From positions 2,976,001-3,040,000 of the forward strand of contig NZ_CP032317.1 in NCBI RefSeq assembly GCF_003574965.1: a DNA stretch of 64,000 bases. The letters run 5' to 3'. Position numbers and translations under genes: made by a program. This document shows positions 1-28,012 of the stretch, one piece after another. The notes beneath the pieces are model-generated. The model saw nothing but the letters and a program-made list of their open reading frames with translations, searched no databases and was not told the DNA's origin. The stretch comes from Hymenobacter oligotrophus (lineage in GTDB: Bacteria > Bacteroidota > Bacteroidia > Cytophagales > Hymenobacteraceae). How positions within the stretch are numbered: position 1 is the first letter of the stretch; each line of letters opens with the position of its first letter.

Positions 1-521
1 CCCAAGCGTAACGGTACTTCATAACTCTCTCTGCTATTGTCGCAAAGGTACGACGTAGCAGGACAGCAATTACTTTATAAAGCGAGGGACTTCCCTATTC
101 AAGCAATAGACAAACAATTGTTTTTCAAACAGTTATCAACTTACAAACTATAAATAGCCAATACTAAGTTTTCACTTCTTGATGATTACGTCTTCGTGCA
201 CGCCGCCAAACCCGTGTATAAACACGTGTTCGGGGTGCTACAAGGTCTAACTGTTGTGCGTTGCCAAGTCCGGCAAAGCGTCCACCTAGCAAAAACATTA
301 TTCGCAAACCGTTGGCTTGCTGCCGGCTCCCCGCTGGGCTTCGGACACCTAGGGCTTCTGGGCACTCGGCTTGACTTGCCAGCCAATTAGCTGATTGGGT
401 TTAACGCACACTGATTTAATTATTTTAATAATCGATTATTTACTTAATACATAAGGTCAATATTATAAAAGATAAAGTCTAAACTTAACACTATGGTAAC
501 ATACTGGCTGCAAACGTCATC
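1..521. other. AT-rich intergenic region without a gene
   Basis: No convincing coding region is seen. Short open frames here lack family features and overlap each other on both strands. The stretch is much more AT-rich than the genes that follow. It probably holds divergent promoters: a minus-strand -7 element near the left edge and the promoter of the nuclease gene at the right. Confidence 0.6.
43..50 (-). promoter_or_regulatory. Possible -7 promoter element reading out of the window
   Basis: The minus strand reads TACCTTTG, a full match to the Bacteroidetes -7 consensus TAnnTTTG. A TTG lies only 16 bases upstream instead of about 19-21, so the -33 part is weak. It would serve a gene to the left of the window. 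Confidence 0.35.
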
Positions 522-529
522 TACTTTTG
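522..529 (+). promoter_or_regulatory. -7 promoter element for the secreted nuclease gene
   Basis: TACTTTTG fits TAnnTTTG exactly and lies about 75 bases before the chosen ATG at 605. No clear TTG is seen at -33. Its position argues against a start upstream of 605. Confidence 0.45.
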
Positions 530-604
530 CAGCTTGAATGCACTACATGTCTACATAGATTAAGTGCAATCTTCTTCTCTCTTCATTCCTCCACTGCCCA
601 CCAA

Positions 605-6641: not shown

Positions 6642-6670
6642 AGGTAGCGGGGACAGGAATACACCCCGCA
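6642..6670. other. attL of the integrative element
   Basis: AGGTAGCGGGGACAGGA at 6642-6658 is identical to 27937-27953, which is the 3' end of tRNA-fMet. Immediately inside, ACACCCCGCA (6661-6670) is an imperfect inverted partner of AGCGGGGACA (6646-6655) with five bases between. Such inverted core half-sites around a short overlap are what tyrosine integrases bind. Confidence 0.85.
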
Positions 6671-6815: not shown

Positions 6816-8156
6816 ATGCGTACCCGTGTGAAGGCAAACACAATACCTTCAATGGCTACTGTTTCTTTTCACTTGAAAGACCCCGGGGCAGATCGCCCCA
6901 CGGCTATTTATGCACTGCTCACCATTAACCGGCGGCACCGCGTGAAGGCCTATACGGGACAGAGCATACACCCTGCCCGCTGGAACAAATCCGATCAACG
7001 CGCCCACGTACGCGGCAAGGGAAATGAGCTAAACGGGCACTTAAATGACGCACTGGTTAGGGCAAGCGAGCGAATACTGATAGCCTATAACCAAAGCCTA
7101 GCTGCCGGCACTCTTCCCACAACTGCGGCCTTACGTGAGGCCGCAGCCCCTGAGCGTCCCGTCGAGCCGGCCCCGCCACTCGTAGCCGCTTCCGGCGGGC
7201 TGTTCTGGCAACGTTATGAGGAATGGGTAAACTATACCCGTGCCGCCGGTACCGTACGTACAGCGCAAGCCCACGCCACCGCCGGACGACACCTACGAGA
7301 GTTTGGCGAAGCCAACGGCTACGCCATCGACTTCGACACTCTGACGACTACCGTGGGCGACCGATGGGCGGCCTACTTGCTGAATGTGGCCGGCCTGACC
7401 GACAATACCATTAACAAACACTTAGGGCGACTCAAGTCGTTTATGAAGTGGGCTATCAAACGGGGTTACACTGAAAACACATCTCTTGACCGAGTAAGCT
7501 GGGCGAGACGAGAGCCAGATGTAGTTGCCCTTAGCGCTGCGGAACTGAAGGCATTGGTGGACTTATCCCTACCAGTAGGTTCCCGGCTGGAAAAGGCCCG
7601 AGCCTGGTTTCTGCTGGCTTGCTATACTGGCTTACGGTACTCAGATCTGGTAAGTATTAAGCTCCAACACTTGCGCCCTGCCACAGATAATTTGCCAGCC
7701 CACTTGCGGTTAACTGCAAAGAAGACACGCGCAGTGGTAAACGTGCCCTTGACCGCGCAGGCGCTGGACATAGTCAACCGGTTGCTGAGAGGGGAATTGG
7801 ATAGCTCCAAAAACCAGCCCATCACCAACCCTGTGCTTAACCGCTTTCTGAAGGAGTTGGGCAAGCTTGCGGGCATCGATGCCCCTGTGGAAGTAATCCG
7901 CTACAGGGGTGGCGTGGCCGATGTGACCACTGCTGCAAAATATGAATGCTTAACAGTTCACACCGCCCGCCGCACGTTTGTGACCTTGAACTTGGGCAAA
8001 GGCATGAGTGCAGAGTTCGTCATGAAATTAACGGGGCACACCTCTTATAAATCGTTTCAGCGGTACGTGAATTTAACACCTCAGCGAGTAGCCGAGGAGT
8101 TTGCCCGATTTCACGAGATGCCTACACTGGCAAATGAGCCCGCAAAAGGATCATAG
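6816..8156 (+). CDS. int: Tyrosine recombinase (integrase) of the island
   Basis: 446 residues. An N-terminal arm-binding region (about 14-110), a core-binding SAM-like domain (about 128-225) and a C-terminal catalytic domain (about 235-425) are recognisable. Catalytic residues fit the family: R274 in TGLRYSDL, H382 and R385 in HTARR, H408 in LTGHTS and nucleophile Y417 in FQRYV. It lies 158 bases inside attL, the usual place for the integrase of a tRNA-borne island, and should catalyse integration into and excision from tRNA-fMet. The ATG at 6816 is preceded by GAGGAA; MATVSF, 36 bases later, is an alternative start. The repeat just upstream could give autoregulation. Confidence 0.95.
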   Translation: MRTRVKANTIPSMATVSFHLKDPGADRPTAIYALLTINRRHRVKAYTGQSIHPARWNKSDQRAHVRGKGNELNGHLNDALVRASERILIAYNQSLAAGTLPTTAALREAAAPERPVEPAPPLVAASGGLFWQRYEEWVNYTRAAGTVRTAQAHATAGRHLREFGEANGYAIDFDTLTTTVGDRWAAYLLNVAGLTDNTINKHLGRLKSFMKWAIKRGYTENTSLDRVSWARREPDVVALSAAELKALVDLSLPVGSRLEKARAWFLLACYTGLRYSDLVSIKLQHLRPATDNLPAHLRLTAKKTRAVVNVPLTAQALDIVNRLLRGELDSSKNQPITNPVLNRFLKELGKLAGIDAPVEVIRYRGGVADVTTAAKYECLTVHTARRTFVTLNLGKGMSAEFVMKLTGHTSYKSFQRYVNLTPQRVAEEFARFHEMPTLANEPAKGS

Positions 8157-9299: not shown

Positions 9300-9623
9300 A
9301 TGCAGGCCGTTATACCAGTAGGCGTTGCCTACTCCCAACTACTAGACGACGTGAGGGCCGTGGTGCGGCACGAACTGCAGCACCAGCCCCAGGCGTGCGT
9401 AACCATTGCGGATAAGCCAACAGATGACGAACTGCTAAGTATTCGTGAAGCGGCTACATTACTTGGTGTTACCGTCCAAACGGTGCACGATTGGAAGCGC
9501 AGGGGGCTTCTTAAATATCACAAGTTGGGAAGCCGAAGCTACCTCAAGCGGATCGATGTCATGAACGCGTTGAAAGGCTATCAACGTGCCGTAAAGCCCC
9601 CAGGACACGGACGGCATGGCTAA
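9300..9623 (+). CDS. Excisionase-like helix-turn-helix protein
   Basis: 107 residues. The C-terminal half (about 40-95) is a MerR/excisionase-type winged helix: LSIREAATLLGVTVQTVHDW followed by a wing with SRSYLKRIDVMNAL. Such small proteins on Bacteroidetes elements bind att DNA or regulate transfer and replication genes. The N-terminal 38 residues are less typical, so the true start could be further downstream. The stop overlaps the start of the next gene by 8 bases (ATGGCTAA), indicating translational coupling with the VirE-N gene. Confidence 0.8.
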   Translation: MQAVIPVGVAYSQLLDDVRAVVRHELQHQPQACVTIADKPTDDELLSIREAATLLGVTVQTVHDWKRRGLLKYHKLGSRSYLKRIDVMNALKGYQRAVKPPGHGRHG

Positions 9624-10515
9624 GCAGACTGCTTTACCAGATGTAGCGCTCCCAGCCGATTCAACTATCTCTCTGGCCGCATGGGGCCCTGATGATCTAT
9701 CTGTTGCATTAGCGTTAACCGGCACTTTCACCCCCACGCCAGACCAGCTGGCCCTGGCGTTGCGAACACTATACCCCAACAGCCGCCACCCTTCGGTCGC
9801 TGACATACTAGCCGCCGGGTGGCTTGTGCCAGACACTTATGGCAAGTGCTTACGGTACCCTCCTATTTCAACAGAAGAGTTATGGAGCCGTATACACCAC
9901 CCACCCCGACCGGAGGCCGCAGCTCCTCAGGATGATAAGCCCGATACCCCGCAGCTTTCTTATTTCACAGGGCCTATCACCAACACACTTCCCCACTTAA
10001 CCATTACCCTGGCTGCCCTGCACCAGGTGATAGTGACGCCCCCACAGACGCTGTTAGAGCGCACACGGGCCGCTAGGACAGAGTACAAAGCCCAAGGGAA
10101 AAGCGCTCGTTACAAGGAGCTAAAATGCCAGCTCGATTACTTCACCGCCGGCGGGATCTTTTCCCGTCGACAAGACCAAGCGTTGCTTGCTCCTTCCGGG
10201 CTCCTCATTCTTGACTTTGATGAACTTGGGAGCCGGGTAGAAGAGGCTAAGCATGCACTGCTGACCGATAGCGCGCTATCTGCAGCCTTGTGCCTTGTGT
10301 TTGTGAGTCCATCTGGCGACGGGCTCAAGGCCGTGCTATCCGCCGATCCTCGGTACCCTCGTCGGACAAACTACGAACACATCGCACGGTACCTGGGCAG
10401 GCAGTATGGCTGGGGCCCCAGCCTGGACGCAAAAACAGCCGATGTGTCGCGTGCCTGCTTCGTGAGCCACGACCCTACGGCATGGCTATCCCCCCATTTA
10501 CATATGGATATCTAA
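9616..10515 (+). CDS. VirE N-terminal/BT4734-like domain protein (primase-like)
   Basis: 299 residues. The N-terminal 100 or so residues are of unknown fold. Residues about 115-295 match the BT4734-like domain (VirE N-terminal domain of Bacteroidetes elements): LILDFDELGSR with D200 and D202, then SPSGDGLKAV near 231, and a closing DVSRACFVSHD. These acidic and SPSGxGLK motifs resemble archaeo-eukaryotic primase-type active sites. In many elements this domain is fused to or followed by DUF3987, as here with the next gene 40 bases downstream. Together they probably serve replication or maintenance of the excised element. Confidence 0.82.
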   Translation: MAKQTALPDVALPADSTISLAAWGPDDLSVALALTGTFTPTPDQLALALRTLYPNSRHPSVADILAAGWLVPDTYGKCLRYPPISTEELWSRIHHPPRPEAAAPQDDKPDTPQLSYFTGPITNTLPHLTITLAALHQVIVTPPQTLLERTRAARTEYKAQGKSARYKELKCQLDYFTAGGIFSRRQDQALLAPSGLLILDFDELGSRVEEAKHALLTDSALSAALCLVFVSPSGDGLKAVLSADPRYPRRTNYEHIARYLGRQYGWGPSLDAKTADVSRACFVSHDPTAWLSPHLHMDI

Positions 10516-10555
10516 CAGCAGGTCGTCACAACCACCCTGTTAACTCCACCAACCA

Positions 10556-12235
10556 ATGGCAACTCTTGACCTTGACAAGCTCATCTCCCTACCCGCGGAT
10601 ACCGGGCAGACAAAGCCCTCCAGCACGCTAGCTTGGTGCTTAAGCAAACACAGCGGCGGCCCGTGCCCTGACGACGGACGCAACATATGGCTAACTGGGC
10701 TTGCCCTATTCTGCAACGAGCAGGGTGTACCGGAAGCGGAACTGTTGGATTGGGCATTGTCCCATCCCCCCCTGGCTACTCACAGGGAAGATCGGATACG
10801 CACTACAATACGCGGGAACTATACCCGACATTCGGCAGCATTTGCCAGTAAGGCCTATCGCGATTCTGTATCATACGGGGTAGATACCACGACCTCTGCC
10901 CTTCTCCCGAACCAGACGGAAGCATCGCCCTTTGCTAACACCCCTATTATACCCGGGGATGTTTACGCTAGCCTGCCCCCACTGCTTCTTGAAGTAGTGG
11001 CGCCCTTCCATAGCGGCCGCGAGCGAGATGTAGTCCTAACGGGAGCACTTGCCGTACTCAGTGGTTGTGCTCCTGGAGTATGGGGCACTTATGGCGACAG
11101 CCGCCACGGTACGAACCTCTTCGCATTTATCGTTGCTCCGCCTGCTTCAGGCAAAGGCAATATGCGCTGGGCGCGTGCCTTGGCGACTCCGGCCCACCAA
11201 GCCCGCGTACTCGAAAGCCAACAAGCACACGATCAGTACACCTTGGAACTTGCTGCCTACGAGGCAGCCAAACGATTGGCCCCTAAAGGAGCTGCCCCTC
11301 CGACCTCACCTGTAGTTCCACCCTTCCGGTTACTTATCATTCCAGGAAACAATAGCGCAGCGGGTATTCTCAAAACTCTTTATCACAATGACGGGCACGG
11401 CATCATCTGCGAGAGTGAAGCCGATACCCTCAGCGGGGCCTTGAAACAGGATTGGGGCAACTTCTCTGACCTTTTGCGCAAAGCCTTTCATCATGAGCCC
11501 GCCAGTGTCAACCGCAAAACCAACAGCGAGTACTTGGAGGTTGTACGCCCCTGCTTGAGTATCGCCCTCACCGGTACCCCTGGACAAGTAGTTGGTCTAA
11601 TTCCCACTGCGGAGAACGGCCTGTTTAGTCGCTTTTTGTTTTATTGTTATGATAGCCCGGCCGTTTGGCGTGATGTAGGGCCAACTGCGGGACGCGAGGA
11701 CCTGGACCGCTACTTCGCTAGCTTGGGCAAGCGGGTTCACAAGATGATGTCCCTTGTTCAACCACCCAATCCAGACGGCACAGGCGGCTTGCAAGCGCAG
11801 TTGGCTCAAGCGCAATGGGAGGCGATCAACGCCACCGGTCATCGTTGGCTTAGCCGGGCAAAGGCCTTGCCTGAAGCGGATGGGGCAGCAAGTATTGTAT
11901 TCCGTATGGGTCTCTCCATGTTCCGCGTTGCAATGCTGCTGGCGCTGCTGCGCGCTTATGATCAAGGGCACCGCCTCAACGGACAATTGCCCATGGAAGA
12001 CCGTGATTTGACTACTGCGTTAGCCTTAGGGGACGTTTACCTGTCTCACTCGTTGGTTCTACTAGATCGGATGCCCAGCTCCGCCAGTGGCCTGACAGCA
12101 CCGCGCAGCAAATGGGCCGACAAGGCAGAACAACAAGAGCGTGTCAAGGAGTTACACAGTCAGGGACTGAGTGTTCGCACAATTGCTGAGCGAACAGGTT
12201 TAGGGAAATCAACTGTTGACCGTTGGCTTAAGTAA
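10556..12235 (+). CDS. DUF3987 P-loop ATPase with C-terminal HTH
   Basis: 559 residues. A primase-C-terminal-like region occupies the first 110. A P-loop APPASGKGN lies near 193-201, an acidic Walker B-like CESEADTL near 285, and a VRPCLSIALTGTP segment near 335; all fit DUF3987, a helicase-like ATPase family. The last 25 residues form a resolvase-type helix-turn-helix (LSVRTIAERTGLGKSTVDRW) ending at the stop. Pairing with the VirE-N protein upstream suggests a replication-initiation pair for the element. The stop codon lies inside a 26-bp perfect inverted repeat, which the C-terminal HTH could conceivably bind. Confidence 0.85.
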   Translation: MATLDLDKLISLPADTGQTKPSSTLAWCLSKHSGGPCPDDGRNIWLTGLALFCNEQGVPEAELLDWALSHPPLATHREDRIRTTIRGNYTRHSAAFASKAYRDSVSYGVDTTTSALLPNQTEASPFANTPIIPGDVYASLPPLLLEVVAPFHSGRERDVVLTGALAVLSGCAPGVWGTYGDSRHGTNLFAFIVAPPASGKGNMRWARALATPAHQARVLESQQAHDQYTLELAAYEAAKRLAPKGAAPPTSPVVPPFRLLIIPGNNSAAGILKTLYHNDGHGIICESEADTLSGALKQDWGNFSDLLRKAFHHEPASVNRKTNSEYLEVVRPCLSIALTGTPGQVVGLIPTAENGLFSRFLFYCYDSPAVWRDVGPTAGREDLDRYFASLGKRVHKMMSLVQPPNPDGTGGLQAQLAQAQWEAINATGHRWLSRAKALPEADGAASIVFRMGLSMFRVAMLLALLRAYDQGHRLNGQLPMEDRDLTTALALGDVYLSHSLVLLDRMPSSASGLTAPRSKWADKAEQQERVKELHSQGLSVRTIAERTGLGKSTVDRWLK

Positions 12236-14649: not shown

Positions 14650-16821
14650 ATGACCGCTATAGAACAACTGGAACGCCGCCTTTGGAGCGCGGCCGACCAG
14701 CTGCGAGCCAACTCGAAGCTTACCTCCACAGAATACTCCATGCCCGTGCTCGGGCTCATCTTCCTCCGCCATGCCAGCAACCGCTACCTGGACGTGGAGC
14801 CTGAAATCCTGGCCAGCCTACCCAGCCGCGGCGGCCAGACGCGCCCGCTCACCAAGGACGACTTTACCCGCAAGGGCGCGCTGTACCTGCGGCCCGAGGC
14901 GCAGTACGACTACCTGCTCAGCCTGCCCAAGGGCCAGGACGTGGCACAGGCCATCATCGACGCGATGCGCTCTATCGAGGCCGACTACGCCGAGATGCTA
15001 GCTGGGGTGCTACCTAAGGACTACCAGATCTTTGAGCCGGAGCTGCTGCGCAACCTGCTCAAGACGTTTAACGACGAGGGCTTACGAGATGCTGGCGGGG
15101 ATGTGCTGGGCCGCATCTACGAGTACTTCCTGATGAAGTTTGCCATGGTCGGCGCGCAGGACAACGGCGAATTCTTTACGCCGCCCTCCCTGGTGCAAAC
15201 CATTGTGAACTTCATAGAGCCGAATCACGGCGTGGTGCTTGATCCGGCTTGTGGCTCGGGGGGTATGTTTGTGCAAACAGCCCACTTCCTGCAGGAAAGC
15301 GGTACTACAGCCAGCCGAGCTGGCGTGGTGTTTCGGGGACAAGAGAAAACAGAGTTAACCATCCGCTTGGCCAAGATGAACTTGGCCGTGCATGGGCTAG
15401 AGGGAAAGATTGAAGAAGGCAACACATTCTACGAAGACAAGCACGAGCTGCTGGGCAAGGCCGACTTCGTGATGGCCAATCCGCCGTTCAACGTTGACGA
15501 GGTTGACGCCGAGAAGGTAAAAAAGGACCCTCGCCTGCCCTTCGGCCTGCCGGGCGTGAATGCCAAGAGCAAGGTGAGCAACGGCAACTACCTGTGGGTG
15601 TCGTACTTCTACTCTTACCTGACCGCTACCGGCCGGGCGGGCTTCGTAATGAGCAGCCAGACCAGCAGCGCCGGCCACGGCGAAAAGGAAGTGCGCCGCA
15701 AGCTGGTGGAAAGCGGGGCCGTGGACGCTATGGTGGCCGTGCGCTCCAACTTCTTCTACACCCGCACTGTGCCCTGCGAGCTGTGGTTCCTCGACAAAGG
15801 CAAGCCGGCCGAGCGCCGCGACCAAGTGCTGATGCTCGACGCCCGCAACGTGTTCCGGAAGGTGACGCGCAAGGTGTACGACTTCTCGCCCGAGCAGGAA
15901 AAGAACCTCACGGCCATCATGTGGCTGTACCGCGGTCAGACCGTCCGTTACCTGGGCTTGGTGCGCGAGTACCTGCGCCAGCTGGAAGCCGAATGCACGC
16001 TCATCCCCGATGCGCTGACGCCGGCGGATGCCTGCCTGAACCTGCTGCTGGAAGCCGTCCAGGCTTTTCTGGCGCGCACCGATGAGGCCGCCGAGCAGCG
16101 CGAAGCCCTGGCTACCGCCGTACAGGAGTGGGAAACCGCCCAGACGGCCTACCGCCTCGACCAGCAAGCCCTGCTCAAGGACCTAGCAGCCTACGCCGCC
16201 ACCTGGGGCCACGTAGCCAAGCCGCAGGCCGTGGCTGGGGCCAACGGGCAAACCAGCTTGTTTGCCCCACCCGCTGCCAACGGCGCCGCCGACTACGAGC
16301 GGCAGAACGCGGAGCAGCAGCAGGCCCGGCAGGCGTTTGGGCCGCTGGCCGCGCAGTGCAAGGGCCTGAGCAAGCAGCTCGACCTACTGGCTAAGCTAGC
16401 GGCCCGCGCCTACGAGTTGGCCGAAGGCCCGGCCCTGAACGCCAAAGCCGACCCCGACTGGGACACCAGCACCCTAAAAAAGGCCCGCAAGGCCCTGGAC
16501 GAGCAGCGCCACTACGCCGCCGAGCAGCTGCAGCAGGCCACCTACTTCCACCGGCAGGCCACCTGGCTGCAAACGCGCTTTCCCGAGGCCCGCTTGCAGG
16601 ACGTGCCCGCCCTGGTGAAGCTGGTAAGCCGCGCTGACATCGAAGCCAACGACTGGAGCCTGACGCCCGGCCGCTACGTGGGCGTGGCCCCGGCCGAAAC
16701 CGACGAGGACTTTGACTTTGAGGAGGAACTACGCGACTTACACTTGGAACTGGCTGGCCTAAACGAGGAAGCTGGCGAGCTAGCGCGGATTATTCAATCG
16801 AATTTTGAGGAATTGCTATGA
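14650..16821 (+). CDS. hsdM: Type I restriction-modification system, methylase subunit HsdM
   Basis: 723 residues, longer than the usual 480-530, with an extended C-terminal coiled-coil region (about 430-660). The N-terminal helical domain (about 5-130) is followed by the N6-adenine methylase core: motif I DPACGSGGMF starting at D198 and motif IV NPPF at 277-280. It uses S-adenosylmethionine to methylate adenine in the target chosen by HsdS and is also part of the restriction complex. Its last codons overlap the hsdS start (ATGA), so the three subunits are translationally coupled. The gene is GC-rich, unlike the centre of hsdS. The start ATG at 14650 follows an AT-rich promoter region. Confidence 0.96.
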   Translation: MTAIEQLERRLWSAADQLRANSKLTSTEYSMPVLGLIFLRHASNRYLDVEPEILASLPSRGGQTRPLTKDDFTRKGALYLRPEAQYDYLLSLPKGQDVAQAIIDAMRSIEADYAEMLAGVLPKDYQIFEPELLRNLLKTFNDEGLRDAGGDVLGRIYEYFLMKFAMVGAQDNGEFFTPPSLVQTIVNFIEPNHGVVLDPACGSGGMFVQTAHFLQESGTTASRAGVVFRGQEKTELTIRLAKMNLAVHGLEGKIEEGNTFYEDKHELLGKADFVMANPPFNVDEVDAEKVKKDPRLPFGLPGVNAKSKVSNGNYLWVSYFYSYLTATGRAGFVMSSQTSSAGHGEKEVRRKLVESGAVDAMVAVRSNFFYTRTVPCELWFLDKGKPAERRDQVLMLDARNVFRKVTRKVYDFSPEQEKNLTAIMWLYRGQTVRYLGLVREYLRQLEAECTLIPDALTPADACLNLLLEAVQAFLARTDEAAEQREALATAVQEWETAQTAYRLDQQALLKDLAAYAATWGHVAKPQAVAGANGQTSLFAPPAANGAADYERQNAEQQQARQAFGPLAAQCKGLSKQLDLLAKLAARAYELAEGPALNAKADPDWDTSTLKKARKALDEQRHYAAEQLQQATYFHRQATWLQTRFPEARLQDVPALVKLVSRADIEANDWSLTPGRYVGVAPAETDEDFDFEEELRDLHLELAGLNEEAGELARIIQSNFEELL

Positions 16822-18020
16822 GTTGGGAAGTTGTCAAGCTAGGTTCCGTTTGCAAGGTCCTGCCTGGGTTTGCCTTCAAAAGTCAATTGATGGGTTCCTC
16901 AGGAATACCTGTAATCAAGATTAAAAATATCAATGATAATCTTGGAGTTGATACACTAGACTGTCAGTGTATTGACGAAGCATATGTGCCCGAAAAGCTA
17001 GCCAAGTTTTTTGTAAGCAAAGGTGATATCCTTCTTGCAATGACTGGAGCTACTGCTGGTAAATTTGGAAGAGTACATGACAATGGTCGGTATTTACTAA
17101 ATCAGCGAGTAGCTAAAATCATTCCCTTTGATGCTGATGCCGATTATATATGGAGTTGCTTAAGTGATTCTAAATATAGAGACCTGCTGTTCAATATTGG
17201 ACAAGGAGCTGCACAGCCAAATATTAGCGGCGGTCAAATAGAGGCCCTTGATATTCCGCTCCCACCTAAGCCAGTTCAAAAGAAGATATCATCAATAATA
17301 TCTGCATACAACGACCTCATTGACAACAACCGCAAGCGTATTGCCCTGCTGGAAAAGGCGGCGCGGTTGCTGTATGAGGAGTGGTTTGTGCGCTTGCGCT
17401 TTCCGGGGCACGAGCATACGCCGGTAGTTGATGGAGTGCCGGTGGGGTGGGAAAAGGATGATATAAGAAGCTGCTCCTCCTATATATCAAGAGGCATTTC
17501 ACCCTCTTACGATGAAGAGGCACCTGGTTTGGTGATCAACCAGAAATGCATCCGAAACAATCAGGTGGACTTAACACCTGCTAGAAACCAGAAGAAGCCT
17601 TTTAAAGACGATAAACAGGTCTTAAAGGGAGATGTACTTATTAATTCAACTGGAGCTGGAACACTCGGCCGGGTTGCTCAATTGTGGAAGGATCTGCCTA
17701 ATTGCACAGTGGATTCACACGTTACTATTGTTCGGCCAAAAGCGGAATCGGGTATTTGTTGGCTGGGTTATCAATTGTCAGTGTTAGAACCTCTGCTTGA
17801 GAATATGGGTGAAGGTTCCACTAATCAGAAAGAATTAGGGCGCGATAGAATAGCAAGCTTGCGGGTACTAGTACCAAGCAGCTCAATTCAACATGCTTTT
17901 GATCAGGTTGTAGCGCCAGTGAAGGAGCAGATGAATGTACTGTCTGCTCAAAACCAAAAGCTCCAACAAGCCCGTGACCTGTTACTGCCCCGCCTGATGA
18001 GCGGTGAACTTGCCGTATGA
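16818..18020 (+). CDS. hsdS: Type I restriction-modification system, specificity subunit HsdS
   Basis: 400 residues with the classic layout of two target recognition domains (about 1-150 and 210-355), each followed by a conserved helix (PLPPKPVQKKISSIISAYND near 152-171 and QNQKLQQARDLLLPRLMSGE near the end). The variable domains are AT-rich, whereas the central conserved helix, 17310-17450, is GC-rich like hsdM and hsdR. This points to exchange of recognition domains by recombination. The two domains should read the two halves of a bipartite target and bring HsdM and HsdR to it. It overlaps hsdM by four bases and its stop overlaps the hsdR start (ATGA). Confidence 0.95.
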   Translation: MSWEVVKLGSVCKVLPGFAFKSQLMGSSGIPVIKIKNINDNLGVDTLDCQCIDEAYVPEKLAKFFVSKGDILLAMTGATAGKFGRVHDNGRYLLNQRVAKIIPFDADADYIWSCLSDSKYRDLLFNIGQGAAQPNISGGQIEALDIPLPPKPVQKKISSIISAYNDLIDNNRKRIALLEKAARLLYEEWFVRLRFPGHEHTPVVDGVPVGWEKDDIRSCSSYISRGISPSYDEEAPGLVINQKCIRNNQVDLTPARNQKKPFKDDKQVLKGDVLINSTGAGTLGRVAQLWKDLPNCTVDSHVTIVRPKAESGICWLGYQLSVLEPLLENMGEGSTNQKELGRDRIASLRVLVPSSSIQHAFDQVVAPVKEQMNVLSAQNQKLQQARDLLLPRLMSGELAV

Positions 18021-21000
18021 GCCAGATGACCGAGGACCGGCTGGTCCAGCAAACAATGGCCGACTACCTGCGCGATGAGCTGCAGTGGCAGTCGGTGTAC
18101 GCCCAAGACCACGAAGTCCTCGGTCAGGGCCCGGAAAGCACGCTGGGCCGCGCCAGCCAGCGCGAAGTGTACCTGGTGCGCTACCTGCGCAAGGCCCTGG
18201 AAAAGCTGAACCCCAAGCTGCCCGCCGCCGCTTACGAAACGGCCATCCGCCAGCTCACCGAAACCAGCTACAAGCGCCAGGATCTGCCGCTGAACCGCAC
18301 CCGCTACCAGGAGTTCCGCGACGGCGTGCTGGTGGAGTATCTCAACGATGATAGCGAGCGGGAAGAGCGCCGCCTGCGGGTGTTCGACTTCAACGAGCCC
18401 ACCAACAACCACTTCCTGGCCGTGCGCGAGCTGTGGGTGCAAGGGCCCACCTACCGCCGCCGGCCCGACATCGTGGGCTTCGTGAATGGGGTGCCGCTGC
18501 TGCTGGTGGAGTTGAAGAACGTGCACCGCAAGCTGCGGGCCGCCTACGAAGAGAACATCCGCGACTACAAGGACACCATCCCGCACCTGTTCGACGCCAA
18601 CGCCGTGGTGCTGATTTCCAACGGTATCGACGCCAAGATTGGGAGCATGTCGGGCAAGTACGAGCACTTTCACGAATGGAAGCGCCTGCAGGAGCAGGAG
18701 CCCGGCGTGGTGCAGCTGGAAACCCTGCTGAAGGGCGTGTGCGCCAAGGCCAACTTCCTGGATTTATTCGAGAACTTCATCTTGTTCGACGACAGCGCCG
18801 GCAAGCTGGTGAAGATTGTGGCCCGCAACCACCAGTTTCTGGGTGTGAACAAGGCCGTGGAGGCCGTGCGCCGCCGGCACGAGCAGCCGGCCGAGCGGGC
18901 CGGGCAACTGGGGGTGTTCTGGCACACCCAGGGCTCGGGCAAAAGCTACTCCATGGTGCTGTTCGCGGAGAAGGTGCGGCGCAAGCTGTCCGGCAACTTT
19001 ACCTACCTAGTCGTCACCGACCGCACCGACCTCAACAACCAGATTTACAAAACCTTTGCCGGCTGCGGCGTGGTCGACAACGACGCCAACCCCTGCCGGC
19101 CGGAGTCGGGCCGGGAGCTGAAGCGCATGTTTCAGGAGGATAAGCCTTACCTGTTCTCGCTCATCAACTTGTTCAACCAGCCCGTCACGGCCGAGGAGCC
19201 GTACACCCGCCGCCCCGATGTCATCGTGATGAGCGACGAGGCCCACCGCAGCCAGTACGGTCGCTTGGCCATCAACATGCGCTTGGCTTTGCCCCAGGCG
19301 CAGTACATCGGCTTCACGGGCACGCCGCTGATGAAGGACGACGAACTGACGCGCCGCATCTTTGGCGACTACGTGAGTACATACAACTTCCAGCGGGCCG
19401 TGGACGACGGCGCCACCGTGCCGCTGTACTACGACAGCCGCGGCGAGAAGCTGCAGCTGAAGAACCCCGAGGTGAACGAGGAGCTGGCGGCCAAGCTGGA
19501 AGAGCTGGAAGACAGCCACAACCTCACCAACGACCAGCGCCGGCAGCTGGAGCAGGCTTTGGCGAAGTCGTACCCTGTGCTCACGGCCGCGACGCGCCTA
19601 GAGCCCATCGCCCGCGACTTCGTGGAGCACTACACCACGGCCTGGGAATCGGGGAAGGCCATGTTCGTGTGCCTGGACAAGGTAACGACGGTGCGCGTGT
19701 ACGAAATGGTGCAGCGCTTCTGGGCCGAGAAAGAAAAGACGCTAGCCCAGGAAATAGCCAAGTGCGCCGACGACCAAGAGCAGGCTCAGCTGCAACGTAA
19801 GCTGGCCTGGATGCAAGCCACCAAGATGGCGGTCGTGATTTCGGAGGAGCAGAACGAAGTGGCTACCTTCCGGCAGTGGGAAATCGACATCGAGCCGTAC
19901 CGTGCCTTGCTCAAGAAGGGCTATGAGGGCACCGATGGCAAGCGTATCGACGTGGAATCTGCCTTCAAGGACGACCAGCACCCACTGCGGGTGGCCTTCG
20001 TGTGCGCCATGTGGCTCACGGGCTTCGACGTGCCTAGCCTGAGCACGCTGTACCTCGACAAGCCACTAAAGGCCCACACGCTGATGCAGGCTATAGCGCG
20101 AGCCAACCGCGTGTACCAAGACAAAACCAACGGCTTAGTGGTGGACTACTGCGGCATCCTGAAAAGCCTACGCGAGGCCCTCGCCACCTTTGGCGGCAAC
20201 TTGCCCGGCGACGAGGGCGGCGGAGGCTTGGGCGAAGTGGGCGGTTCGGGCGACGGCCCCAGCGGCGGCGACTCGCCCATCAAGCCCGAAGAGGAGCTGC
20301 TGGATGAGCTGGCTAAAAGCCTGATGACGGCCCGGCAGTTCCTGCTCAAGAGCGGCTTCGAACTGAACGATTTGCTCAACGCCACAGGCTTTGCTCGCAA
20401 TGCTGCCATCGCTAAGGCCGCGGAGCTGCTGAACGTGAAGGAAGAGGTACGCAAACACTACCAGGCCCTGAATCGCGATGCGGAGGTGAAGCTGAAAGCC
20501 TGCGTGAACATCGCCGGCGTACATGCCTACCTAAACGAGTACGACGCGCTGCGCATCATAAGCAAGAAGCTGGACGAGGACCGCGACAAGGCCGACATCA
20601 CGGCCCTGCTGCGGCAGATGCAGTCGGTGGTGGACAGCGCAATCACGGCCGTGGCCGAGCCGCTTGTGGGCTACAAGAAGCCCTACGACATGAGCAAGAT
20701 CAACTTCGAGCGGCTGAGCCAGGAGTTTGCCAAGTCGGAGAAGAAGAACACGCTCACGCAGCAACTCAAGCAAGAAGTAGAAGAGCAGCTGAAGCAGATG
20801 GTGGCCCAGAATCCCACCCGCATCGACTTCAACCAGCGCTACCAGCAGATCATCGCCGACTACAATCACGAAAAGGAGCGGCAGACGATCGAGGAGACGT
20901 TTGAGCAACTGCTCAACTTCGTGCAGGAGTTGACGGAGGAGCAGAAGCGGGCCATGCAGGAAGGGTTGAGCGAACCGGAATTGGCGCTATATGACCAGCT

Positions 21001-21268
21001 GCTGAAGCCGAACCTGAAGTCGACGGAGCGGGAAAAGCTGAAGAAGGTAGCCCACGAGCTGCTGGAAGCTCTGCAGCGCGAGAAGCTACAGCTGCGCTGG
21101 CGCGAGACGGAGGAAACGAAGGCGGAGGTGAAGACCTTCATCTACGACTTCCTCTATGACGAGCAAAAGGGTTTGCCGGAGTCGTACACGCCGGAGGAGA
21201 TAGAGGTGAAGAGTGGACTGCTGTACGAGTTTTTCTACCAGCATCAACAAGTGCATATGGCAGCGTAG
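18017..21268 (+). CDS. hsdR: Type I restriction-modification system, endonuclease/translocase subunit HsdR
   Basis: 1083 residues. The N-terminal nuclease domain has D151 (RRPDIVGF) and E165-x-K167 (LLVELKN), the PD-(D/E)XK site. The two RecA-like motor domains follow: Walker A HTQGSGKS from H303, DEAH box starting D407 (MSDEAHRSQYGRL), motif III GFTGTPL and a C-terminal helicase motif AIARANRVY. The helical C-terminal region (about 760-1083) binds the methylase. A Gly/Glu-rich linker lies near 735-755. All key residues are intact, so the enzyme should translocate and cut unmodified DNA. The next gene begins 39 bases after the stop, suggesting read-through into the downstream nuclease genes. 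Confidence 0.96.
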   Translation: MSQMTEDRLVQQTMADYLRDELQWQSVYAQDHEVLGQGPESTLGRASQREVYLVRYLRKALEKLNPKLPAAAYETAIRQLTETSYKRQDLPLNRTRYQEFRDGVLVEYLNDDSEREERRLRVFDFNEPTNNHFLAVRELWVQGPTYRRRPDIVGFVNGVPLLLVELKNVHRKLRAAYEENIRDYKDTIPHLFDANAVVLISNGIDAKIGSMSGKYEHFHEWKRLQEQEPGVVQLETLLKGVCAKANFLDLFENFILFDDSAGKLVKIVARNHQFLGVNKAVEAVRRRHEQPAERAGQLGVFWHTQGSGKSYSMVLFAEKVRRKLSGNFTYLVVTDRTDLNNQIYKTFAGCGVVDNDANPCRPESGRELKRMFQEDKPYLFSLINLFNQPVTAEEPYTRRPDVIVMSDEAHRSQYGRLAINMRLALPQAQYIGFTGTPLMKDDELTRRIFGDYVSTYNFQRAVDDGATVPLYYDSRGEKLQLKNPEVNEELAAKLEELEDSHNLTNDQRRQLEQALAKSYPVLTAATRLEPIARDFVEHYTTAWESGKAMFVCLDKVTTVRVYEMVQRFWAEKEKTLAQEIAKCADDQEQAQLQRKLAWMQATKMAVVISEEQNEVATFRQWEIDIEPYRALLKKGYEGTDGKRIDVESAFKDDQHPLRVAFVCAMWLTGFDVPSLSTLYLDKPLKAHTLMQAIARANRVYQDKTNGLVVDYCGILKSLREALATFGGNLPGDEGGGGLGEVGGSGDGPSGGDSPIKPEEELLDELAKSLMTARQFLLKSGFELNDLLNATGFARNAAIAKAAELLNVKEEVRKHYQALNRDAEVKLKACVNIAGVHAYLNEYDALRIISKKLDEDRDKADITALLRQMQSVVDSAITAVAEPLVGYKKPYDMSKINFERLSQEFAKSEKKNTLTQQLKQEVEEQLKQMVAQNPTRIDFNQRYQQIIADYNHEKERQTIEETFEQLLNFVQELTEEQKRAMQEGLSEPELALYDQLLKPNLKSTEREKLKKVAHELLEALQREKLQLRWRETEETKAEVKTFIYDFLYDEQKGLPESYTPEEIEVKSGLLYEFFYQHQQVHMAA

Positions 21269-21307: not shown

Positions 21308-23389
21308 ATGTTTGCACTTCTACTCCAAGCTGACACAATGCAGGCTGCCTCCGGAGCCGTTGGTAATGGTGATGGATGGTTATTTTGGGCCACAGCAGGC
21401 CTAGGCGCCATATTATTTTACCTCCTTTATTTTCTTTCACCTAGAAAAGACAAAAAGAAAAATACTGGTTGGCCCAATGAGCCATGGGTTGGGAAGAAGT
21501 CATTTTCTAACCCGTCAGCCGCTAGCGACAAAGTGCCTTCGGCCGTTGCCGCACGTAAGGCACCAGCTGAAATAGTAACAACGACTAAGGCACCTAAACC
21601 CACTATAACGACAGTAGAGACAGTACCTGAGAAAGAGGCAAAGGCTTCACTGTCACCTATTGCTATGAATTCAGAGTCCTCTACAACAAGTAGCCACAAA
21701 CCAATAAAACCTAAATTGCCTACCGCCCAACCGATACCAGCTGACGCTATAGCGCTGGAAGAGATAGAGCGGGAGTTAGCTTTAAAATCCAAGTACGCCG
21801 CGCTAGTTAAGGGCACCCCAAAGGCCGCTTCGGCGCGTCCTGCGGCCAGCACGGGTGCAACTGGGCACCAGCAATCGGGGGTAGGTAAGCCCATCGCCGT
21901 TTCGCTTCCGGACATAGAAAAGGTATCGGCGACGGCAAAGTTTATTGGCTACGAGCCGATACCGGTGCCCGACACGGGTGCGTTTCCAAAGGTGCGCCTG
22001 CCCAAGCTAGGCTGCGTCATCAAGTTTCCGCGGGTGGGACGCTCGGGGCGCCGTGGCTACAAGGAAGCCGATTTCATGCAGGTGATGAGCCAGTGGCTGA
22101 GCAGCGGCGCGGTGAAGGTCTACAACGACCGGCACGTGCCCACGCCCAACGCCGTTAGCCCGTACGAGCCCGACCTGGTGGTCATCAACGAGCAGAACGG
22201 GCTAAACTTGTTTCTGAACATTGAGATCGACGAGCCCTATGACGGGGTATTCCGCCAGCCCATTCACTGCCTCCAAGAAGACGACGCGCGCGATGAGTTT
22301 TTCACCCGGCGCGGCTGGGTGGTGGTGCGGTTTGCGGAAATCCAGGTGCACCAGCAGCCGGAGGCGTGCTGCGCGTATGTAGCGCAGCTGATCAAGCGCC
22401 TGGCTCCTGACTACGCGGTGCCAGCTGCGCTTCAAGGGCTAGCTCTGCAACCCGTCACTTGCTGGGACAACGTACAAGCCCAAAAATGGGCCAAGCAGCG
22501 CTACCGGGAAAGCTACCTGGGCATTGCCGATTTCGGGCGGCGGGACGTGGCGACGGACTGGCAGCCCGCCGCGGCCCTGGACGTGGAGTTGGCCATCGAA
22601 GAACTGGTAGATAAAACGCCTTTGAAAGCGGCGGCGGAGCCACGCAACCGCAGGCAACTCGAGGCGGTGAACGGTCACCCGCGGGATGCCCGCTTGCAGT
22701 TTGACCCCGAAGCGCACCAGTACTTCATCAACGGGCAGCCGGCAACGGCGGTCAGCACCTTGGTCGACCGGTTCTTCCCCGAGTTCGACAAGCACTACTG
22801 GGCCCCCCGCACCGCGGCGAAGCGCGGCATGACGGCGGGAGCAGTGCTCGAGGAGTGGGAGCAAAAGGGCCGCACGTCGGCGGACCTGGGCACCCGCCTG
22901 CACGAACACATCGAGGCGTTCTACAACAGCGGGCACGCGGGCGTTGTCACGCCCGAATTCCAGCAGTTCCTGGATTTTCACGCCGACCACGGCCATTTGG
23001 AGCCTTACCGGACGGAGTGGCGGGTGTTCAACGAGGAGCTCATGATGGCCGGGACGGTGGACTTCGTGGCGCGCAACGCGGATGGCACGGTATCGATCTA
23101 CGACTGGAAGCGCAGCGCCAAGGTTATCCACGCGGACGGGAGCATCCAGCGAAACAATTACCAAACCGCCGAAGGCCCGCTGAACGACCTGGACGATTCC
23201 CGGTTCAGCCGCTACTCCATCCAGCAAAACATTTACAAGTGGCTGCTGGAATCCAAGTACGGCTGTCGGGTGCGCAGCATGCACTTGGTTGTCCTGCACC
23301 CGGATTACGACGAGTACACGGTCTTGGAAGTACCCGACCGCGCCGCCCACGTGGCGAAGATCGTTGCCTCGTTGCGGGCTGGTTGCTAA
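21308..23389 (+). CDS. Membrane-anchored protein with two different nuclease-like domains
   Basis: 693 residues; no named family recognised. Residues 24-44 form one membrane segment followed by a basic RKDKKK stop, so most of the protein should face the cytoplasm. Residues about 50-200 are a Thr/Ala/Pro/Lys-rich linker. Residues about 225-375 resemble Vsr/DUF559-type endonucleases: EPDLVVI with D289, NIEIDE (E306, D308), then DEFFTRRGWVVVRFAE. Residues about 455-690 resemble RecB/Cas4-type PD-(D/E)XK nucleases: H532 in RLHEHIE, D585 in AGTVDFVAR, D599-W-K601, and QxxxY (Q639, Y643). The linker-coding DNA is AT-rich while the nuclease-coding DNA is very GC-rich, suggesting a composite origin. 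The gene follows hsdR by 39 bases and precedes another nuclease-like gene by 44, so it may work with the restriction operon. Confidence 0.8.
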   Translation: MFALLLQADTMQAASGAVGNGDGWLFWATAGLGAILFYLLYFLSPRKDKKKNTGWPNEPWVGKKSFSNPSAASDKVPSAVAARKAPAEIVTTTKAPKPTITTVETVPEKEAKASLSPIAMNSESSTTSSHKPIKPKLPTAQPIPADAIALEEIERELALKSKYAALVKGTPKAASARPAASTGATGHQQSGVGKPIAVSLPDIEKVSATAKFIGYEPIPVPDTGAFPKVRLPKLGCVIKFPRVGRSGRRGYKEADFMQVMSQWLSSGAVKVYNDRHVPTPNAVSPYEPDLVVINEQNGLNLFLNIEIDEPYDGVFRQPIHCLQEDDARDEFFTRRGWVVVRFAEIQVHQQPEACCAYVAQLIKRLAPDYAVPAALQGLALQPVTCWDNVQAQKWAKQRYRESYLGIADFGRRDVATDWQPAAALDVELAIEELVDKTPLKAAAEPRNRRQLEAVNGHPRDARLQFDPEAHQYFINGQPATAVSTLVDRFFPEFDKHYWAPRTAAKRGMTAGAVLEEWEQKGRTSADLGTRLHEHIEAFYNSGHAGVVTPEFQQFLDFHADHGHLEPYRTEWRVFNEELMMAGTVDFVARNADGTVSIYDWKRSAKVIHADGSIQRNNYQTAEGPLNDLDDSRFSRYSIQQNIYKWLLESKYGCRVRSMHLVVLHPDYDEYTVLEVPDRAAHVAKIVASLRAGC

Positions 23390-23433
23390 GCCTCGACCGT
23401 GCGCCATCCCGCTTTACCCGACACGCCCTTCGC

Positions 23434-25059
23434 ATGACCGACTTCTTTACGCCGGCCGACTTGGCCCTGCTGCATACCTACGCCAACGAGCCGCACGACG
23501 GCAGCCCGGGCCACGCCCTTGCCGAACGCCAACTGCTGGCGGGGGTGTGGGCCAAAACGGTTTACTGGGCCGAGCAATTGGCCGGGGACGGGTTTGAAGC
23601 GCAGGTGCGCAAGTCGGCCATCCGGCGCGCGGGCACGGTGACAAACGCCGCGGGCCAGAAGCGCATGAACCGGGTGTTCAAACATTTCACTTGGGCCCGG
23701 CTTTACCGGCCGGGGCACGAAGCGTTCAAAATCTTCTTCACCATCGGTGTCGACGGGCTTCGGCAGGAGCTGGTCTGGAAGCTTGACTGCCAGCACGACG
23801 GCACCGGGGCCTTGGACAAGCGCTTGGTCCGCCGCTTCCAAGAGTTCGTCGCGCACCAAGCTCCTCAGGTAGCCTGGCAAGCCATTCCCGCGGCCCAGCT
23901 CAAGCGCCACGATTGGGACACGGTGGTGCAGGCCTCCCAACAATTCATCCAAGTGCAGACCCACGTGTACGACCAGGCGCTGGACTATGTCTGGCAGGGG
24001 CGCCGGCCCGAGGAAGACAAGCTGGCGCGCATCTGCTGGAACACCCACGACTGGCAAACCCCCTCCGGTCCGGAAGGGAAAAGCCAGGCGGCCGGCTCGC
24101 ACGAAAGCGACGCGTTCGGCGGCTTCGGCGGCGAGGAATGGCTTTTCGACTTCAGCCGTCTGTGGAAGGGTTACCACTACGCGTTCCTGCAGCCGCTCAA
24201 CACCGACTCCGACGTGTACGGCGGGCGGGTGATGAACATCCGCTTGTTTACCCGCAACGCGGACACGGGCGAGTACTTTTACGTGGGCCGCATCCGGCAA
24301 GCCGAAATCCTGACCGACCAGCAAGTAACCCAATCGCGGGCCCACGCGGATGCCCAGGGATGGCTGGACGGCATGCGCCACGAGTTAAGAGCCGCCGGCA
24401 GCGCCGGCACCTTCGATCCGAAAATGTTCGGCCGGGGCCCGTTCAACCTCCGCTTCAAGCCCGAGCAGGTCGAGCGCCCGGCCACCCCCGACGGGCTGGT
24501 ACGCATCGAGGACATCAGCACGTGGACGGACAGCCAGCGGTACGTGTTGTTCGACGACGTGTCGCCGGACGAGACCTACACTCCATCCTGGCAGCGGAAC
24601 GCCCCGCCGGTGGCGCCCCAGGTCGTTCTCAACCCTCGCACCAAACGCGGCGCCACCGCCCGCGCCCGCCACGTCCAAGCCCGCAGCATCGAACTGCGCG
24701 CCCTGCACGAGCAGGTGCAGTCGCGGTTAATCAAGCACCTGCGGCAGCAGTTTCCGGGGGAGGAAGTGGTCAAGGAAGCCTTAATTAAGCCGTTTAACAG
24801 CTACATCGACGCGGTCCGCCGGCCGGCCAGCGGCCGCGATGTGTTCTACGAAGTGAAGGTGCTGCCTACGCTCAAGGCCTGCATCCGGGAAGCGCTGGGG
24901 CAGCTGCTGGAATACGCGTGCTGGCCCGACCAGGTGTTGTCGCGCGAGTGGGTCGTGGTTTCTTACCACCCCGCCACCGCCGAATCCACGCGCTACTTAA
25001 ATAAGTTGCGGGCGGAATTCAACCTGCCCGTGGAATATCTGCAAATCCCCCTAACCTAG
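23434..25059 (+). CDS. Large protein with C-terminal PD-(D/E)XK-like nuclease domain
   Basis: 541 residues from the ATG at 23434 (MTDFFTPAD), 44 bases after the previous stop; the frame is open much further upstream but that part overlaps the preceding gene. Residues about 1-150 are helical with an FKIFFTIGVD strand. Residues about 225-300 (LFDFSRLWKGYHYAFLQPL to YFYVGRIRQAEIL) could be a reader or nucleic-acid-binding domain, a weak inference. Residues about 430-541 fit a PD-(D/E)XK fold: D459 in SYIDAVRR, E473-x-K475 in YEVKV, and QLLEY (Q490, Y494), ending in beta strands. Strongly GC-rich. The spacing suggests a two-gene module with the membrane-anchored protein, attached to the hsd operon. 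A restriction-like or anti-phage role is inferred. Confidence 0.78.
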   Translation: MTDFFTPADLALLHTYANEPHDGSPGHALAERQLLAGVWAKTVYWAEQLAGDGFEAQVRKSAIRRAGTVTNAAGQKRMNRVFKHFTWARLYRPGHEAFKIFFTIGVDGLRQELVWKLDCQHDGTGALDKRLVRRFQEFVAHQAPQVAWQAIPAAQLKRHDWDTVVQASQQFIQVQTHVYDQALDYVWQGRRPEEDKLARICWNTHDWQTPSGPEGKSQAAGSHESDAFGGFGGEEWLFDFSRLWKGYHYAFLQPLNTDSDVYGGRVMNIRLFTRNADTGEYFYVGRIRQAEILTDQQVTQSRAHADAQGWLDGMRHELRAAGSAGTFDPKMFGRGPFNLRFKPEQVERPATPDGLVRIEDISTWTDSQRYVLFDDVSPDETYTPSWQRNAPPVAPQVVLNPRTKRGATARARHVQARSIELRALHEQVQSRLIKHLRQQFPGEEVVKEALIKPFNSYIDAVRRPASGRDVFYEVKVLPTLKACIREALGQLLEYACWPDQVLSREWVVVSYHPATAESTRYLNKLRAEFNLPVEYLQIPLT

Positions 25060-27900: not shown

Positions 27901-27936
27901 AAAAAGAGCCGTTTTCGCATTGAAAACGGCTCTTTT
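27901..27936 (-). terminator. Replacement tRNA terminator carried by the island
   Basis: AAAAGAGCCGTTTTC pairs with GAAAACGGCTCTTTT around a 5-base loop and ends one base from the tRNA-derived repeat. On the minus strand it lies directly after tRNA-fMet, in the same position that the displaced hairpin at 6603-6639 would have had before integration. Confidence 0.85.
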
Positions 27937-27939
27937 AGG

Positions 27940-28012
<73 letters not shown>

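What the first reader, a model, noticed from the sequence alone, without database searches (positions are those of the whole stretch)
21308..25059. Two-gene module with three nuclease-like domains attached to a type I restriction operon
Directly after hsdR, with gaps of 39 and 44 bases, come a membrane-anchored 693-residue protein and a 541-residue protein. The first has a Vsr/DUF559-like domain (D289, E306, D308) and a RecB/Cas4-like domain (H532, D585, D599-x-K601, Q639xxxY643). The second ends in a PD-(D/E)XK-like domain (D459, E473xK475, Q490xxxY494). I know of no described defence system with this arrangement. It could be a back-up to restriction that acts near the membrane.
Basis: partly seen in the sequence, partly recalled or inferred. 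Interest (0 to 1): 0.88.

Follow-up and report, generated by a model that had tools for sequence, protein, structure and literature searches.

The report
Extra nucleases riding on restriction operon
Behind a standard bacterial DNA-restriction operon, on a mobile island, sit two extra nuclease genes that are independent add-ons rather than one new system; one belongs to an undescribed, widespread family that looks like an enzyme for cutting chemically modified phage DNA.

Summary
In detail: a 693-aa and a 541-aa gene follow hsdR with gaps of 39 and 44 bases, and every catalytic residue named is present and conserved in relatives. "Two-gene module" does not hold. In 204 genomes of the bacterial family the two genes co-occur no more than by chance, and none of 80 loci with a 541-aa relative has a relative of the 693-aa gene nearby. 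The 693-aa protein (membrane anchor, weakly supported Vsr/DUF559-like domain, MGME1/RecB-type exonuclease domain) usually has a different partner: an SF1 (UPF1/Dna2-like) helicase gene 0-20 bases downstream in 7 loci, missing here. The 541-aa protein belongs to a family of at least 125 loci in many phyla, absent from Pfam, NCBIfam, PHROGs and PADLOC. It is modular: N domain, M domain, PD-(D/E)XK domain. N is also fused to a McrB GTPase, and M to an HNH nuclease. The family recurs inside type I operons (23/80 loci; full-length form 15/22). Best reading: a single-chain, type IV-like (modification-dependent) restriction enzyme riding with type I restriction, as TgvAB does. All five genes are cargo of a 21-kb tRNA-Met island. 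Nothing was tested experimentally.

The parts
6642..6658 (.). left end repeat of the mobile island (AGGTAGCGGGGACAGGA), 17/17 identical to the tRNA-Met 3' end
   Evidence: repeat search
6816..8156 (+). tyrosine integrase of the island
   Evidence: Pfam Phage_integrase E 3.6e-15
9300..12235 (+). HTH_17 excisionase-like gene, PrimPol/BT4734-like primase and DUF3987 gene of the mobile element
14650..16821 (+). hsdM, type I methyltransferase subunit
   Evidence: Pfam N6_Mtase E 1.7e-73 and HsdM_N
16818..18020 (+). hsdS, type I specificity subunit
   Evidence: Pfam Methylase_S E 7e-25
18017..21268 (+). hsdR, type I restriction/translocase subunit
   Evidence: Pfam HSDR_N, SWI2_SNF2, T1R_D3-like; TIGR00348
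21308..23389 (+). P0001, 693-aa membrane-anchored putative nuclease
   Evidence: family alignment; AF2
21380..21436 (+). P0001 residues 25-43: predicted transmembrane helix
   Evidence: hydropathy 1.90 over 19 residues, kept in 9/11 sequences
21980..22522 (+). P0001 residues 225-405: Vsr/DUF559 (MTES_1575)-like domain with D289, E306, D308
   Evidence: weak Pfam hits; invariant residues
22685..23362 (+). P0001 residues 460-685: MGME1/RecB/Cas4-type exonuclease domain with H532, D585, D599-x-K601, Q639, Y643
   Evidence: phrog_298 E 2.2e-25; Foldseek MGME1 E 6e-7
23434..25059 (+). P0002, 541-aa putative modification-dependent restriction enzyme (domains N-M-C)
   Evidence: AF2 pLDDT 90.4; domain architectures
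23434..23997 (+). P0002 N domain (residues 1-188), also fused to a McrB GTPase elsewhere
   Evidence: L021, E 1.8e-26; McrC next to it
24007..24633 (+). P0002 M domain (residues 192-400), N203, P210, G212, G232-x-EEWL; fused to an HNH_2 nuclease in Vibrio
24676..25056 (+). P0002 C domain (residues 415-541): PD-(D/E)XK nuclease with D459, E473-x-K475, Q490, Y494
   Evidence: Foldseek NucS/EndoMS E 7e-4; invariant in 72 sequences
27937..27953 (.). right end repeat of the island, at the 3' end of tRNA-Met
   Evidence: relatives' homology breaks at 27928-27937
27938..28012 (-). tRNA-Met, integration site

Best explanation
Two independent accessory nucleases have joined a type I restriction operon carried by a mobile island. 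P0002 is most likely a single-polypeptide, type IV-like (modification-dependent) restriction enzyme: one or two N-terminal reader domains (N and M) bind modified DNA, and the C-terminal PD-(D/E)XK domain cuts it. It would catch phages whose modified bases make them immune to HsdMSR. P0001 is a membrane-anchored nuclease with a long flexible linker, a Vsr/DUF559-like domain and an MGME1-like single-strand exonuclease domain. Its family often works with an SF1 helicase, as a split Dna2-like nuclease-helicase pair. Here the helicase is missing from the locus, so P0001 either acts alone on DNA near the membrane or uses ends or single strands made by the other enzymes. Shown by computation: folds, residue conservation, domain shuffling, gene neighbourhoods, mobile island. 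Inferred: that N and M read modified bases, that the domains cleave DNA, and that either gene protects against phage.
For: P0002: the C domain has a PD-(D/E)XK fold and invariant catalytic residues in 72 sequences. The N domain occurs on a McrB GTPase (L021, E 1.8e-26) next to a true McrC (E 2.9e-61). An extra ~88-aa N-terminal domain of many relatives also occurs on another McrB (L059, E 6e-6, model built without it; GTPase confirmed E 2.6e-58). The M domain is fused to HNH_2 in Vibrio gigantis (E 3.2e-12). Architectures NMC, MC, NC, N-McrB and M-HNH are swapped like reader and cutter modules. Type I linkage: 23/80 loci have hsd genes within 10 kb, 15 of them adjacent; the full-length NMC form 15/22 (Fisher p 5e-6, related sequences). 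Roughly 0.6% would be expected by chance, from about 150 specificity domains (about 1.3 hsdS loci per genome) in 60 genomes (my arithmetic). The tree needs 9 changes of the hsd label and supported branches force 5. P0001: helicase gene 0-20 bases downstream in L050-L053, L056, L057 and L148; the helicases have diverged to about 31% identity yet the pair is kept; MGME1-like fold.
Against: No modified-base binding was shown. N and M match no solved structure or Pfam family, so 'reader' rests on fusion partners and context. About 70% of P0002-family loci show no hsd genes in the sequence at hand, although many contigs are short. The P0001 model is of modest confidence (mean pLDDT 59.6) and its DUF559-like domain has only sub-threshold matches.
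Confidence: 0.6

Rival explanations
1. hsdMSR, P0001 and P0002 form one functional unit: HsdR translocation or damage activates the membrane-anchored nuclease P0001 and P0002 as a back-up.
For: Same strand, short gaps of 39 and 44 bases, one mobile cargo. A related membrane-anchored DUF559-like protein follows hsdR with a 98-base gap in another genome (L065).
Against: The two genes do not co-occur elsewhere. P0002 relatives stand elsewhere in hsd operons (between hsdS and hsdM, or before hsdM). P0001 relatives more often pair with a helicase.
Confidence: 0.13
2. P0002 is a guard effector of the type I complex, like PrrC or RloC: it is held inactive by Hsd proteins and released when a phage inhibits them.
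For: Frequent insertion inside hsd operons. The PrrC comparison is from general knowledge.
Against: It has a PD-(D/E)XK DNase-type fold, not an anticodon nuclease. Most loci show no hsd genes, and the short form sits alone, e.g. among GNAT and single-gene cassettes on a Vibrio plasmid.
Confidence: 0.1
3. P0001 is a decayed orphan: it lost its helicase partner and is no longer functional in this island.
For: No SF1 helicase near it; AAA_11 genes of the genome are far away. The partner gene is adjacent in 6 of 10 other full-length-type loci fetched from family genomes.
Against: All catalytic residues, the anchor and the reading frame are intact. Relatives in L054, L055, L058 and L059 also lack the helicase.
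Confidence: 0.12
4. P0002 is a structure- or damage-specific repair nuclease (NucS/EndoMS-like) that merely travels with restriction genes.
For: The best fold match of the C domain is NucS/EndoMS.
Against: Patchy distribution over many phyla, domain sharing with McrB and HNH proteins, and a defence-rich context fit defence better than housekeeping repair.
Confidence: 0.1

Closest known systems
TgvAB, type IV (GmrSD-family) system embedded in the type I operon of Vibrio cholerae VPI-2 (PMC11411939)
   Same: Modification-dependent restriction genes lodged in a type I operon on a genomic island; proposed complementary coverage of modified and unmodified phages.
   Different: TgvAB uses DUF262 and DUF1524 (His-Me) domains and two proteins; P0002 has unrelated domains and a PD-(D/E)XK nuclease in one chain.
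McrBC type IV restriction
   Same: The P0002 N domain and the extra N-terminal domain of its relatives are found at the N-terminus of McrB proteins; McrC has a PD-(D/E)XK nuclease; McrBC is often next to type I systems (PMC11090510).
   Different: P0002 has no AAA+ GTPase, no McrC partner and no DUF3578.
Single-chain reader-nuclease type IV enzymes (reader-HNH types such as ScoMcrA; from general knowledge)
   Same: Recognition module plus nuclease in one chain; the M domain also occurs with HNH_2.
   Different: N and M match no Pfam family or solved structure.
Shield / ShdA (PMC10270631; type I association noted in PMC11090510)
   Same: N-terminal membrane anchor followed by a restriction-fold nuclease, found with type I operons.
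   Different: ShdA has an RmuC domain and long coiled coil; P0001 has DUF559-like and MGME1-like domains.
Two-gene nuclease-helicase defences (Hachiman, PMC12278908; Gabija, Mokosh from general knowledge) and Dna2
   Same: P0001 relatives plus an adjacent SF1 helicase make a nuclease-helicase pair.
   Different: Other nuclease and helicase families; no helicase in this window.

Membership tests
Type I restriction-modification (neighbouring operon) | hsdM, hsdS and hsdR in one operon | tested here: met
Type IV (modification-dependent) restriction enzyme: P0002 | endonuclease domain with intact catalytic residues | tested here: met
   fold; D459, E473, K475 invariant in 72
Type IV (modification-dependent) restriction enzyme: P0002 | domain that recognises modified DNA | tested here: inconclusive
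   N and M are shared with McrB and HNH proteins but have no known fold match
Type IV (modification-dependent) restriction enzyme: P0002 | cleaves only modified DNA | not testable with these tools
   needs biochemistry
McrBC | McrB AAA+ GTPase plus McrC | tested here: not met
   no such domain in P0002 and no match to McrB or McrC models in PADLOC for the scanned genes
GmrSD | DUF262 and DUF1524 domains | tested here: not met
Shield (ShdA) | RmuC domain | tested here: not met
   no RmuC match to P0001
P0001 + SF1 helicase pair | AAA_11/AAA_12 helicase gene directly downstream | tested here: not met
   present in 7 other loci but absent in the window; genome search
RecB/Cas4/MGME1-type PD-(D/E)XK exonuclease: P0001 C-terminus | fold and H...D...DxK...QxxxY motif | tested here: met
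Vsr/DUF559 family: P0001 residues 225-405 | match above the curated cut-off | tested here: not met
   15-16 bits against cut-offs of 20.6 and 38.2; motif residues invariant

The most novel reading that the evidence does not exclude
The island encodes a layered defence on one operon: type I restriction of unmodified DNA, a new class of single-chain type IV enzyme (P0002) with undescribed base-reader domains for modified DNA, and a membrane-tethered two-nuclease protein (P0001) that degrades the products at the entry site, using HsdR as the motor in place of its usual SF1 helicase.
Probability: 0.1. Interest if true: 0.85.

Novelty: new variant of a known kind. Interest (0 to 1): 0.56.

Why it matters
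The P0002 family (at least 125 loci across Bacteroidota, Pseudomonadota, Myxococcota, Chloroflexota and others, plus one archaeal bin) has no entry in the libraries searched. It offers a new domain pair, probably for sensing modified DNA, with clear catalytic mutants to test. If it is a type IV enzyme it adds a new single-chain class and a further case of type I and type IV restriction travelling together. The pair of P0001 relative and SF1 helicase is a separate, testable candidate defence system with a Dna2/MGME1-like nuclease, mostly tethered to the membrane.

Tried and rejected
Two-gene module: rejected on co-occurrence. P0002 as McrBC or GmrSD: rejected by domain scans. Helicase cluster c4 as a remote P0002 equivalent: the sequences show an SF1 helicase instead. 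Naming the M and N folds: sequence-to-PDB searches gave only chance hits, and Foldseek of the whole model gave only nuclease matches at the top in PDB and the viral library. The extra N-terminal domain against PDB: chance hit only. First genome-contig scan with P0002 alone: no relatives; it worked with an alignment. Promoters and terminators between the genes: no more than in shuffles. Left flank of the island in genus relatives: not conserved, so the empty site rests on the right flank, on the G200 locus and on the 17-bp repeat. Literature: no paper on this P0002 family or on a DUF559-MGME1-helicase pair was found; most preprints and subscription journals are not held.
Full report
Observation. 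hsdM, hsdS and hsdR are firm. P0001 (21308-23389) and P0002 (23434-25059) follow on the same strand with gaps of 39 and 44 bases, and no terminator-like site lies between the genes beyond chance. The residues named are all present. They are conserved: D289, E306, D308 in 11/11 P0001 relatives; H532, D585, D599, K601, Q639, Y643 in 9/9 relatives that have the second nuclease domain; D459, E473, K475, Q490, Y494 in 72/72 P0002 relatives.

P0001. Residues 439-681 match a phage exonuclease family (phrog_298, E 2.2e-25). The AlphaFold2 model, of modest overall confidence (mean pLDDT 59.6, second nuclease domain mostly 75-92), gives human MGME1 as best PDB match (E 6e-7, TM-score by target length 0.60-0.65), followed by Cas4-type, Exo5 and RecE nucleases. 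Residues 282-360 touch MTES_1575 and DUF559 only below their cut-offs. A single N-terminal transmembrane segment is predicted in 9 of 11 sequences and in all 7 shorter DUF559-type relatives examined. Two relatives (L058, L059) keep the anchor and the DUF559-like domain but carry a different C-terminus (WYL match in L058). So the anchored DUF559-like part is the constant unit and the C-terminus is exchanged.

P0001 partners. In six family loci (L050-L053, L056, L057) and in viral contig L148 the next gene, 0 to 20 bases away, is an SF1 helicase with AAA_11 and AAA_12 domains. The helicases of L050 and L056 are about 31% identical, so the pair has been kept over long divergence. The window has no such gene; the nearest AAA_11 hits in its genome are some 280 kb and 2 Mb away. 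In L059 the partner is instead a McrB GTPase 107 bases downstream. In L065 a membrane-anchored DUF559-like protein with TPR and LRR repeats directly follows hsdR, a second case of such a protein at that position.

P0002. No family library recognises it. The alignment-based scan found 125 relatives in genome contigs, of which 80 were kept, in Bacteroidota and many other phyla. With 72 sequences AlphaFold2 gives mean pLDDT 90.4. Only the C domain matches solved structures: NucS/EndoMS, Card1/Can2, McrC, EcoO109I. Domain searches over all loci give the architectures NMC 27, MC 59, NC 2, and N fused to a McrB-type AAA+ protein (L021, E 1.8e-26), with N alone in two; L013-L015 and L068-L070 are the same contigs, so these are counts of loci, not of independent events. 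Next to L021 lies McrC (E 2.9e-61). A further N-terminal domain of about 88 residues in many relatives also occurs on the McrB of L059 (E 6e-6 with a model that left it out). The M domain with the motif WN..GW..PSG..GK...GxGHEEWL is joined to HNH_2 in a Vibrio gigantis plasmid protein. Exchange of the same modules between McrB, HNH and PD-(D/E)XK partners is what recognition modules of modification-dependent enzymes do; this is inference, not a test.

Context of P0002. Within 10 kb, 23 of 80 loci hold hsd genes, and in 15 an hsd gene is adjacent on the same strand. Full-length NMC forms: 15 of 22; other forms: 8 of 58 (Fisher p 5e-6, sequences not independent). In 60 family genomes there are about 150 specificity domains, or roughly 1.3 hsdS loci per 5-Mb genome, so below 1% would be expected by chance (own arithmetic). 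On the tree the hsd label changes at least 9 times, 5 forced by supported branches. Positions differ: hsdR-hsdS-P0002h-hsdM in Pontibacter virosus (L070); hsdS-AAA ATPase-unknown-P0002h-hsdM in Flavobacteria (L080); P0002h-hsdM in a Hymenobacter (L068). Other loci hold GmrSD_N, DEAD/ResIII helicases and AAA_15/21 ATPases nearby.

Not a module. In 204 family genomes P0001 matches occur in 26 and P0002 matches in 11; besides the own genome only G037 has both, and only as partial hits on different contigs; about 1.2 shared genomes would be expected by chance. None of the neighbourhood ORFs of the 80 P0002 loci carries the DUF559-like domain of P0001.

Mobile island. A perfect 17-bp repeat at 6642-6658 and 27937-27953 coincides with the 3' end of tRNA-Met. 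A tyrosine integrase, an HTH_17 gene, a PrimPol-like gene and a DUF3987 gene follow the left end. In all 7 genus relatives homology across the tRNA breaks near 27924-27937 (27895 in one), and in one of them sequence matching window 1-77 lies some 350 bases from that break. The hsd genes, P0001 and P0002 are therefore cargo, which by itself explains why unrelated defence genes sit together.

Comparison. Type I operons with embedded type IV genes are known: TgvAB in V. cholerae and, cited there, RloF of Campylobacter (PMC11411939); McrBC systems are often next to type I systems (PMC11090510). A membrane-bound restriction-fold nuclease in type I loci is known from Shield (PMC10270631, PMC11090510). 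What is new here is the P0002 family with its undescribed N and M domains, and the P0001-helicase pair. Hence 'new variant of a known kind'.

Limits. No activity was measured. 'Reader' is inferred from domain shuffling. Literature coverage is partial and the PADLOC copy dates from 2023, so either family may have been described elsewhere.

Noticed in passing
window 6642-27953: A 21-kb element integrated at the 3' end of tRNA-Met, with 17-bp end repeats, integrase, excisionase-like, PrimPol-like and DUF3987 genes; absent at this site from all 7 genus relatives.
   Followed up: yes
window 12337-13836 (-): ADP-ribosylglycohydrolase fused to a dual-specificity (DSP-PTPase) phosphatase domain, on the same island next to hsdM.
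   Followed up: no
L050-L053, L056, L057, L148: Conserved two-gene pair: anchored or soluble DUF559+MGME1-like nuclease followed by an SF1 UPF1/Dna2-like helicase; a candidate defence system of its own.
   Followed up: partly
L077-L080, L083, L086, L099, L136: Flavobacterial operon hsdS - AAA_15/21 ATPase - ~297-aa protein of unknown family - P0002 relative - hsdM; the ~297-aa protein has no Pfam match.
   Followed up: partly
L065 7735-10500 (-): Membrane-anchored DUF559-like domain fused to TPR and LRR repeats, directly after hsdR.
   Followed up: no
G210, G228, G243, G257, G270, G282 and others of family f8: Many small genomes (1.1-1.6 Mb) of one family carry a stand-alone ~250-aa relative of the MGME1-like domain, perhaps a housekeeping exonuclease there.
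   Followed up: no
L021, L059: McrB proteins with N-terminal domains that no Pfam family describes, shared with the P0002 family.
   Followed up: partly
window 527-1954 (+): DNA/RNA non-specific endonuclease (Endonuclease_NS) gene just outside the island.
   Followed up: no
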